Under the pieces are notes generated by a model, which saw only the letters and a list, made by a program, of their open reading frames with translations, was not told where the DNA came from and ran no database searches. A stretch of DNA of 38,288 nt, taken from positions 1,141,584 to 1,179,871 of the forward strand of contig CP070724.1 in NCBI GenBank assembly GCA_020350825.1. Reading direction: 5' to 3'. Both the position numbers and the translations under genes were made by a program. Positions 36,715 to 38,288 of the stretch are shown here, piece by piece (the first letter of the stretch is position 1; each line of letters begins with the position of its first letter). Source of the stretch: Thermoplasmatales archaeon (GTDB lineage: Archaea; Thermoplasmatota; E2; DHVEG-1).

Positions 36715-38196
36715 ATGAGTAATAAAGTTGGTAAGATTATATATACAAAAGTTGATGAAGCGCCAGCACTAGCAACTTACTCATTTCTCCCTATCGTCAA
36801 AGCATTCACAGAGGCAGCAGGAGTTACCGTTGAAACAAGAGACATCTCTCTTGCTGGAAGAATTATTGCAAACTTTCCAGAAAATTTAACTGAGAGTCAA
36901 AAGCAATCAAATGATCTTGCTGAACTTGGTGAGCTTGTAAAAAAACCAGAAGGAAATGTCATCAAACTCCCATGTATTAGTGCTTCAATTCCTCAGTTAA
37001 AAGCAGCAATAAAAGAATTACAAGAGCATGGTTATAATTTACCAGATTATCCAGAGGATCCCAAAAATGAAGAAGAGAAGAAAATCAAAGCTAGGTACGA
37101 TAAAATTAAAGGAAGCGCTGTAAATCCAGTCTTAAGAGAAGGAAACTCAGATCGTAGAGTTCCAGGTCCAGTAAAAAATTATGCGAAAAAGAATCCTCAC
37201 CCAATGGGTGAATGGACTAAAGACTCTAAATCACATGTTGCACATATGAGTAGTGAAGATCTTCGTTCTAATGAAAAATCTGTTACTATCACAAAAGCAA
37301 CAGCTGGAGATGCTAAAATTGAGTTTGTCGATAAAGATGGAAATATAAAATTATTAAAAGAAAAACTTCCTCTTATTGATGGCGAAATTATAGATGCAAC
37401 GGTTATGAGGAAGCGTGCTCTGCGTACATTTCTTGAAGAACAAGTAAATGATGCAAAAAAGAATGATATATTGTTCTCTGTCCATCTAAAAGCTACAATG
37501 ATGAAAGTATCTGACCCTATTATTTTTGGTCATGTAGTTTCTGTTTTTTTCAAGGATGTTTTTGAAAAACATGCATCTGTATTTTCAGAACTGGGTGTCA
37601 GCCCTAACAATGGACTGGGAGACCTTTACATAAAAATAAAAAATTTACCAGACGATAAAAGAAAAGAAATCGAAGATGACATTCAAGCATGTTATGAAAA
37701 GGGACCAAAACTTGCGATGGTGAACTCGGATAAAGGCATTACAAATCTACATGTACCCAGTGATACAATCATTGATGCATCTATGCCTGCTGCAATTCGC
37801 AATTCAGGAAGAATGTGGGGACCAGATGGCAAACTTTATGACACAAAATTTGTGATACCTGATAGTAGCTATGCCGGTGTTTATCAGGAAGTAATTGAAT
37901 TTTGTAAAAAACAGGGTGCTTTTAATCCAACAACCATGGGAACTATTCAAAATGTAGGTCTTATGGCACAAAAAGCAGAAGAATACGGTTCTCATGATAA
38001 AACATTCCAAACACCGGGTAATGGAAAAGTTCGAGTTGTCGTAGAATCTGGACAAACATTGCTTGAACATTCAGTTGAAGAAGGTGATATTTGGCGTGCA
38101 TGTCAAGTCAAAGATCTTCCGATTCAAGATTGGGTAAAACTTGGTGTAAATAGAGCAAAAGCAACAGGTTCACCTGCGGTATTTTGGTTAGATTAA
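36715..38196 (+). CDS. icd: Isocitrate dehydrogenase, monomeric NADP type, ended by in-frame TAA
   Basis: 493 residues to a TAA at 38194-38196, whereas monomeric IDH is normally about 740. The visible part is clearly monomeric IDH: KIIYTKVDEAPALATYSFLP, NPVLREGNSDRR (substrate residues Ser134, Asn137, Arg141, Arg147), VHLKATMMKVSDP with Lys259, ASMPAAIRNSGRMWG after Asp354, and KAEEYGSHDKTF with Tyr424. Family residues that bind metal and substrate (Arg547, Asp548, Asp552 in the Azotobacter enzyme) and much of the NADP site come later and would be missing. The same frame continues after the stop with family-like sequence. The enzyme normally oxidises isocitrate or reductively carboxylates 2-oxoglutarate. 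Green sulfur bacteria use a monomeric IDH in the reductive TCA cycle. As read, the product would be inactive. Confidence 0.9.
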   Translation: MSNKVGKIIYTKVDEAPALATYSFLPIVKAFTEAAGVTVETRDISLAGRIIANFPENLTESQKQSNDLAELGELVKKPEGNVIKLPCISASIPQLKAAIKELQEHGYNLPDYPEDPKNEEEKKIKARYDKIKGSAVNPVLREGNSDRRVPGPVKNYAKKNPHPMGEWTKDSKSHVAHMSSEDLRSNEKSVTITKATAGDAKIEFVDKDGNIKLLKEKLPLIDGEIIDATVMRKRALRTFLEEQVNDAKKNDILFSVHLKATMMKVSDPIIFGHVVSVFFKDVFEKHASVFSELGVSPNNGLGDLYIKIKNLPDDKRKEIEDDIQACYEKGPKLAMVNSDKGITNLHVPSDTIIDASMPAAIRNSGRMWGPDGKLYDTKFVIPDSSYAGVYQEVIEFCKKQGAFNPTTMGTIQNVGLMAQKAEEYGSHDKTFQTPGNGKVRVVVESGQTLLEHSVEEGDIWRACQVKDLPIQDWVKLGVNRAKATGSPAVFWLD

Positions 38197-38288
38197 CACA
38201 GTGCACATGATGCACAACTTATAGAAAAGATAAATCACTATCTAAAAAATCATGATACAGAAAGTTTGGAAATTAAGATCATGTCACC
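38197..38288 (+). pseudogene. In-frame continuation of isocitrate dehydrogenase beyond TAA (cut by window edge)
   Basis: Immediately after the TAA, in the same frame, the translation is HSAHDAQLIEKINHYLKNHD followed by TESLEIKIMS. This aligns with the conserved FWLDENRAHDAQLI to EGLDIKILS part of monomeric IDH, the stop falling exactly where the family has Glu or Pro. No start codon with RBS precedes the segment. One base change (GAA to TAA) would explain the interruption. Either the gene is interrupted, the base is an assembly error, or the stop is read through. Confidence 0.75.

What the first reader, a model, noticed from the sequence alone, without database searches (positions are those of the whole stretch)
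38185..38288. In-frame TAA inside an otherwise well-conserved monomeric isocitrate dehydrogenase
The last residues before the stop are PAVFWLD and the frame after it reads HSAHDAQLIEKINHYLKNHD, so alignment with the family passes through the stop with no gap. About a third of the enzyme, with key metal- and NADP-binding residues, lies downstream. Possible explanations are an assembly or sequencing error (G to T at 38194), a recent nonsense mutation in an anabolic gene, or genuine readthrough of TAA. The last would be new for an archaeon, where only TAG (pyrrolysine) and TGA (selenocysteine) recoding are known. The rest of the operon is intact, which argues against decay of the pathway.
Basis: partly seen in the sequence, partly recalled or inferred. 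Interest (0 to 1): 0.8.

Follow-up and report, generated by a model that had tools for sequence, protein, structure and literature searches.

The report
Stop codon at an assembly gap
The stop codon that cuts this archaeal metabolic enzyme short lies 92 bases before a gap in the assembled genome, beside a stretch identical to a second, intact copy of the gene, so it is likely an assembly error (or else a broken spare copy) and probably not a new way of reading through stop codons.

Summary
The TAA at 38194-38196 is in the sequence, in frame, inside a monomeric NADP-isocitrate dehydrogenase gene (icd). But the window ends at a 100-N scaffold gap, 92 bases after the stop. The same assembly holds a second acn-aclB-aclA-icd operon with an intact 749-codon icd. 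The last 86 bases before the gap match that copy without a mismatch; the 60 bases before them differ at 14 positions, and 12 of 12 relatives compared differ from the 86 bases at 15-26 positions. The stop is one of three transversions within nine bases, all amino-acid changing, one at an arginine kept in 120 of 120 listed homologues. The missing third of this icd is nowhere else in the assembly (89% complete). No UUA-anticodon tRNA was seen among 43 of 46 tRNA matches that could be named, and TAA is the commonest terminator. Two other in-frame TAAs of this genome stand where relatives mostly have lysine and tyrosine, which does not look like one recoded amino acid. Most likely: a junction error at a contig end. 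Next: a real nonsense change in a redundant copy. Reads, not held here, would decide.

The parts
31540..33489 (+). acn, aconitase, operon copy 1
   Evidence: PF00330 and PF00694; PRK07229 aconitate hydratase
33512..34789 (+). aclB (my label), ATP-citrate lyase subunit with ATP-grasp and citrate-binding domains, operon copy 1
   Evidence: PF24948, PF16114
34789..36690 (+). aclA (my label), ATP-citrate lyase subunit with CoA-ligase and citrate-synthase-like domains, operon copy 1
   Evidence: PF00549, PF00285
36715..38193 (+). icd copy 1, N-terminal 493 codons of monomeric isocitrate dehydrogenase
   Evidence: 93% identical as protein to copy 2
38194..38196 (+). in-frame TAA; lysine codon in copy 2 and in 16 of 16 full-length relatives
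38194..38202 (+). cluster of three transversions against copy 2 (38194, 38197, 38202), reading stop-H-S against K-N-R
38203..38288 (+). 86 bases identical to icd copy 2, ending at the 100-N scaffold gap

Best explanation
The in-frame TAA lies 92 bases before a 100-N assembly gap in one of two acn-acl-icd operon copies of the same assembly, and it is most likely a junction error at a contig end, where the contig of copy 1 runs into sequence of the intact copy 2, and probably not a stop that the cell reads through. How it likely works (inferred): the assembler followed copy 1 until its reads could no longer be told from those of copy 2, continued for 86 bases in copy 2 sequence and stopped at the fork; a scaffolder then placed 100 Ns. 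The three changes at the switch point, one of which makes TAA, would be poorly supported or mis-assembled bases. Shown: the gap, the second intact copy, the identical tail, the cluster of changes, and that the missing third is not elsewhere in the assembly. Not shown: read support.
For: Window end is the edge of 100 N. Second operon with an icd of 749 codons in the same assembly. Tail 38203-38288: 0 of 86 mismatches to copy 2, against 14 of 60 in the bases just before (three of the 14 are the cluster itself) and 15-26 of 86 for each of 12 relatives. Among 119 of 120 homologues that could be compared over 29 tail residues, only copy 2 itself has no difference, the next has 4. Three amino-acid changes in three adjacent codons, at or beside positions kept in 12 of 12 aligned relatives (K, R) or 10 of 12 (N). 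The C-terminal third occurs once in the assembly, in copy 2. Of 28 edges of 14 gaps in the stretches held at that time, 5, this one included, continue as exact repeats of another held place, 86-141 bases long.
Against: The three changed bases match neither copy 2 nor the relatives aligned, so a clean switch alone does not explain them; low base quality or depth must be assumed. Long identical runs between the copies are not unique to the end: a run of 77 bases lies elsewhere in icd, and a run of 86 or more somewhere has a shuffle frequency of 0.05. Icd is more alike between the copies (dS 0.35) than acn, aclB and aclA (1.2-1.7), so real exchange between the copies is plausible and could also give an identical tail. 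At least two other in-frame TAAs occur in this genome in genes whose stop is not beside a gap, so stops of this sort are not confined to contig ends. 23 of the 28 gap edges showed no exact repeat in the stretches held. No reads are held.
Confidence: 0.6

Rival explanations
1. A real nonsense change in a redundant copy: copy 2 supplies IDH and copy 1 icd has recently lost its C-terminal third (a young pseudogene). The identical tail would come from gene conversion, and the contig broke because the two copies are identical from there on.
For: Intact copy 2 makes copy 1 dispensable. Icd has dS 0.35 between the copies against 1.2-1.7 in the other three genes, as if exchanged more recently. Two other genes of this genome carry a single in-frame TAA away from gaps, with one Pfam profile running across it.
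Against: Three adjacent changed codons at conserved positions and no other stop or shift in 493 codons. A random nonsense site would have to fall by chance within 92 bases of a contig end.
Confidence: 0.3
2. The window contig, with operon copy 1, belongs to another member of the family and was scaffolded into this genome by mistake, so that the two copies are not in one cell; the stop is still a contig-end artefact or a real change in that other organism. This overlaps with the other two explanations.
For: aclB of copy 1 groups with genomes of other genera (G013, G012, G023; 99/97 support) and not with copy 2. dS between the copies in acn, aclB and aclA is as large as between genera.
Against: Along icd, copy 2 of this same genome is the nearest of the 13 sequences compared in every 120-base step, tied in one. 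Two full-length aclB copies are also found in G010 and G011. Stated contamination is 0.82%. Transfer of the operon within the family would give the same tree.
Confidence: 0.08
3. Genuine read-through of TAA, giving a full-length IDH from copy 1.
For: The frame continues in alignment for about 30 codons after the stop. Two other genes of this genome have a single in-frame TAA with homology on both sides.
Against: No UUA anticodon in 43 of 46 tRNA matches that ARAGORN named. TAA ends 169 of 270 long frames. None of 16 full-length relatives has the stop. Relatives mostly have K, Y and K at the three TAAs, no single residue. The codon after next has lost an arginine kept in 120 of 120 listed homologues.
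Confidence: 0.01

Closest known systems
Monomeric NADP-isocitrate dehydrogenase (TIGR00178, PF03971; solved example 1itw)
   Same: The 493 codons before the stop and about 30 after it align to the family; the intact copy 2 aligns to 1itw over residues 5-744.
   Different: Cut by TAA and then by the contig end; with 861.9 bits the fragment stays under the TIGR00178 cut-off of 950.
Sequence errors at contig ends and collapsed repeats in draft and metagenome assemblies
   Same: Gap, tail identical to a paralogue, clustered changes at the switch.
   Different: Read support could not be inspected; the description of the class is from my own knowledge.
Stop-codon recoding in archaea (TAG pyrrolysine, TGA selenocysteine; recalled)
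   Same: An in-frame stop in an otherwise alignable gene.
   Different: TAA, no matching tRNA seen, stop not conserved in relatives, varied residues at other TAAs. A survey of 191 prokaryote genomes reported no promising candidate for a further stop-encoded amino acid (PMC1914089, abstract and section list seen).

Membership tests
Monomeric IDH (TIGR00178) | Similarity to the family model along the N-terminal part | tested here: met
   PF03971 855.3 bits, positions 1-485 of 734; TIGR00178 positions 1-491 of 744
Monomeric IDH (TIGR00178) | Score over the curated cut-off for the whole protein (full-length enzyme) | tested here: not met
   861.9 bits against 950 for the fragment; the C-terminal third of copy 1 is not in the assembly
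TAA read-through or recoding | A tRNA that could read UAA | tested here: not met
   46 Rfam tRNA matches, 43 named by ARAGORN, one of them with a four-base call, none UUA; 3 not named; assembly 89% complete, so absence is not proof
TAA read-through or recoding | Stop conserved at the site in relatives | tested here: not met
   lysine codon in 16 of 16 full-length relatives
TAA read-through or recoding | Other in-frame TAAs stand for the same residue | tested here: not met
   K in 14 of 19 relatives' rows at one, Y in 10 of 11 at the other; only two such genes examined
TAA read-through or recoding | Full-length product | not testable with these tools
   needs proteomics
Contig-end junction artefact | Site at a contig end | tested here: met
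   100 N start at the base after 38288
Contig-end junction artefact | End of the contig identical to another place of the assembly | tested here: met
   86 of 86 bases
Contig-end junction artefact | Poor or mixed read support | not testable with these tools
   no reads held
Pseudogene of a duplicated gene | Intact paralogue in the same genome | tested here: met
   749-codon icd in operon copy 2; that both lie in one cell rests on the assembly
Pseudogene of a duplicated gene | Further decay of the gene | tested here: inconclusive
   no other stop in the 493 codons upstream; the downstream part is missing

The most novel reading that the evidence does not exclude
The TAA is real and is decoded as an amino acid, so that operon copy 1 makes a full-length isocitrate dehydrogenase: programmed ochre read-through in an archaeon, perhaps shared with the C25 peptidase and ABC permease genes of the same genome that carry single in-frame TAAs.
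Probability: 0.01. Interest if true: 0.85.

Novelty: not a real feature. Interest (0 to 1): 0.1.

Why it matters
If the TAA were read through it would be a new kind of recoding in archaea. As it stands it is a caution: an in-frame stop within about 100 bases of a scaffold gap, next to sequence identical to a paralogue, should be set aside before recoding is considered. A side result may interest specialists: this archaeal assembly holds two ATP-citrate-lyase operons as far apart as those of different genera, except in icd, where the two copies look more recently exchanged.

Tried and rejected
TAA read-through: rejected as the main reading on tRNAs, terminator usage, relatives and the varied residues at other TAAs. 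A contig overlap set by one k-mer length (86 or 87): considered and dropped, because other gap edges with exact repeats showed 104, 136, 141 and 141 bases. The rest of copy 1 icd elsewhere in the genome: not found. A name for the organism through genome contigs: the 80 loci returned were 65-71% identical, and the tool says that records very near the window's genome may be left out; the nearest named proteins in the list of 120 are from Thermoplasmatales archaea, among them SG8-52-4 and SG8-52-2.

Other in-frame stops in this genome: 56 adjacent same-frame pairs passed a filter in 871 kb (33 TAA, 16 TAG, 7 TGA), one gene being counted twice because it lies in two stretches. I gave 14 of these pairs to Pfam, 10 with TAA, 3 with TGA and 1 with TAG (two further single halves were also scanned). 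In 2 of the 14 (C25 peptidase and ABC2 permease, both TAA) one profile runs across the stop; in 3 (L130, L134, L229) the halves are different families, that is, neighbouring genes; 9 were inconclusive. As most of the tested pairs were TAA pairs, this does not measure TAA against TAG and TGA.

Paper searches: listings only; I saw no paper on this gene or case there. Abstract and section list of PMC1914089 were seen. Structure prediction was not run, because it could not separate the explanations.

Full report
What is there. Window 36715-38196 is an open frame of 493 codons that ends in TAA at 38194-38196. It is the N-terminal two thirds of monomeric NADP-isocitrate dehydrogenase (PF03971 positions 1-485 of 734; TIGR00178 positions 1-491 of 744, 861.9 bits against a cut-off of 950). 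It is the last gene of acn - aclB - aclA - icd: an aconitase, two ATP-citrate lyase subunits and IDH. The labels aclA and aclB are mine.

The end of the window is the end of a contig. In the genome that holds the window, 38288 is followed by exactly 100 N (L003 8873-8972). The TAA is 92 bases before this gap. The C-terminal third of the protein is found complete once in the genome, in operon copy 2, and otherwise only as about 30 codons at the end of this window. So whether the frame stays open to about residue 740 cannot be tested here.

A second copy. The same assembly holds a second acn-aclB-aclA-icd operon near 2.16 Mb, with icd intact at 749 codons. It aligns to the solved structure 1itw over residues 5-744. 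The LRDYLTD stretch, which I recall as carrying substrate and metal residues, lies downstream of the stop position in that alignment.

The tail is that of copy 2. From 38203 to 38288 copy 1 and copy 2 agree at 86 of 86 bases; of the 60 bases before, 14 differ, three of which are the cluster described next. Icd without the tail is 91.1% identical between the copies. Each of 12 relatives differs from the tail at 15 to 26 bases. At protein level 119 of the 120 listed homologues could be compared over 29 residues (P0049 was too short): only copy 2 itself (P0003) had no difference, the next best had 4. A terminal identical run this long appeared in 0.0003 of 20,000 codon shuffles. Against too much weight on it: a run of 86 or more somewhere in the gene appeared in 0.05 of the shuffles, and a real run of 77 lies elsewhere in icd.

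Three changes in nine bases. Against copy 2, bases 38194, 38197 and 38202 are A to T, A to C and A to T. They turn K-N-R into stop-H-S. In 120 of 120 listed homologues (of 8000 scored) the third residue is R and the first is K (114) or E (6). In 16 of 16 full-length relatives the codon at the stop is AAA (13) or AAG (3), and none has a stop inside the gene; the TAA and TGA that one search lists for G028 and G043 are their normal ends. Where direction could be scored against 12 relatives, copy 1 has 6 specific amino-acid changes, 3 of them in these three codons, and 5 silent ones (the printed 7 include 2 from an N codon); 104 sites were ambiguous. Between the copies icd has dN 0.035 and dS 0.35.

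Interpretation. The simplest account is that the contig of copy 1 runs into sequence of copy 2 at its end and that the bases at the switch are unreliable. Other gap edges of this assembly can show the same sort of end: of 28 edges of 14 gaps, 5, this one included, continue as an exact match to another held stretch, for 86, 104, 136, 141 and 141 bases; 23 do not, but only the stretches held at that time were compared. Against this account, the three odd bases match neither copy, so poor base support must be assumed as well, and reads are not available. A real nonsense change followed by a gene-converted, hence collapsed, 3' part fits nearly as well. Exchange between the copies is plausible because icd has dS 0.35 while acn, aclB and aclA have 1.2 to 1.7.

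Read-through. Rfam tRNA matches number 46. ARAGORN named 43 of them, one with a four-base anticodon call, none with anticodon UUA; 3 were not named. TAA ends 169 of 270 stop-to-stop frames of at least 200 codons in the window and 20 stretches (TGA 52, TAG 49). I looked for other in-frame stops in 871 kb of this genome. Of 14 adjacent pairs given to Pfam, 10 of them TAA pairs, two had one profile running across the stop, both TAA: a C25 peptidase (profile 2-137, then 141-373; TAA at G000:C1 759138-759140) and an ABC2 permease (3-144, then 153-283). At these two places relatives have K in 14 of 19 rows and Y in 10 of 11 rows. Lysine at icd and the peptidase but tyrosine at the permease does not look like one recoded residue; ordinary nonsense changes or errors explain it. 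In a wider search with the peptidase, stops inside homologues were listed in several genomes, TAA most often, TAG sometimes. That such stops occur away from gaps raises the chance of the real-nonsense rival and is counted so.

Surroundings. The two operons are not recent duplicates. aclB of copy 1 groups with genomes G013, G012 and G023 of other genera (99/97), copy 2 elsewhere. Two full-length aclB copies are also found in G010 and G011; of 60 genomes searched 52 had any match. Horizontal transfer of the operon within the family and mis-binning are both possible. One member of the PF00180 family exists in the genome; whether it is an isocitrate or an isopropylmalate dehydrogenase was not tested.

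Verdict. Probably an artefact, perhaps a broken spare copy, very unlikely read-through.

Noticed in passing
L003 2041-8872 and L004 (operon copies 1 and 2): Two acn-aclB-aclA-icd operons in one assembly; dS is 1.2-1.7 in the first three genes but 0.35 in icd, and aclB of copy 1 groups with other genera: likely transfer plus later exchange in icd, or mis-binning.
   Followed up: partly
L219 1305-3338, minus strand (TAA at G000:C1 759138-759140): C25-family peptidase gene with a single in-frame TAA, 399 codons before and 278 after it, no gap in the 15-kb stretch; 14 of 19 relatives' rows have lysine there.
   Followed up: partly
L225 3153-4022, minus strand: ABC-2 permease gene with a single in-frame TAA where 10 of 11 relatives' rows have tyrosine; the nearest gap in that stretch is over 8 kb away.
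   Followed up: partly
G000 whole genome: 48 matches to the C25 peptidase in this one genome, and dozens in same-genus genomes: a strikingly large secreted-peptidase-like family.
   Followed up: no
protein P0049 (public database, not the window): A 513-residue IDH homologue stops shortly after the same place with the tail SLIHISEPTRPY, which I recall as translated sequencing adapter: another IDH fragment cut by an artefact.
   Followed up: no
L224 about 12700-13500: A phosphoesterase-like frame some 500-900 bases from a gap, broken by a TAA and, by eye, by shifts of frame; the two pieces have no Pfam match.
   Followed up: no
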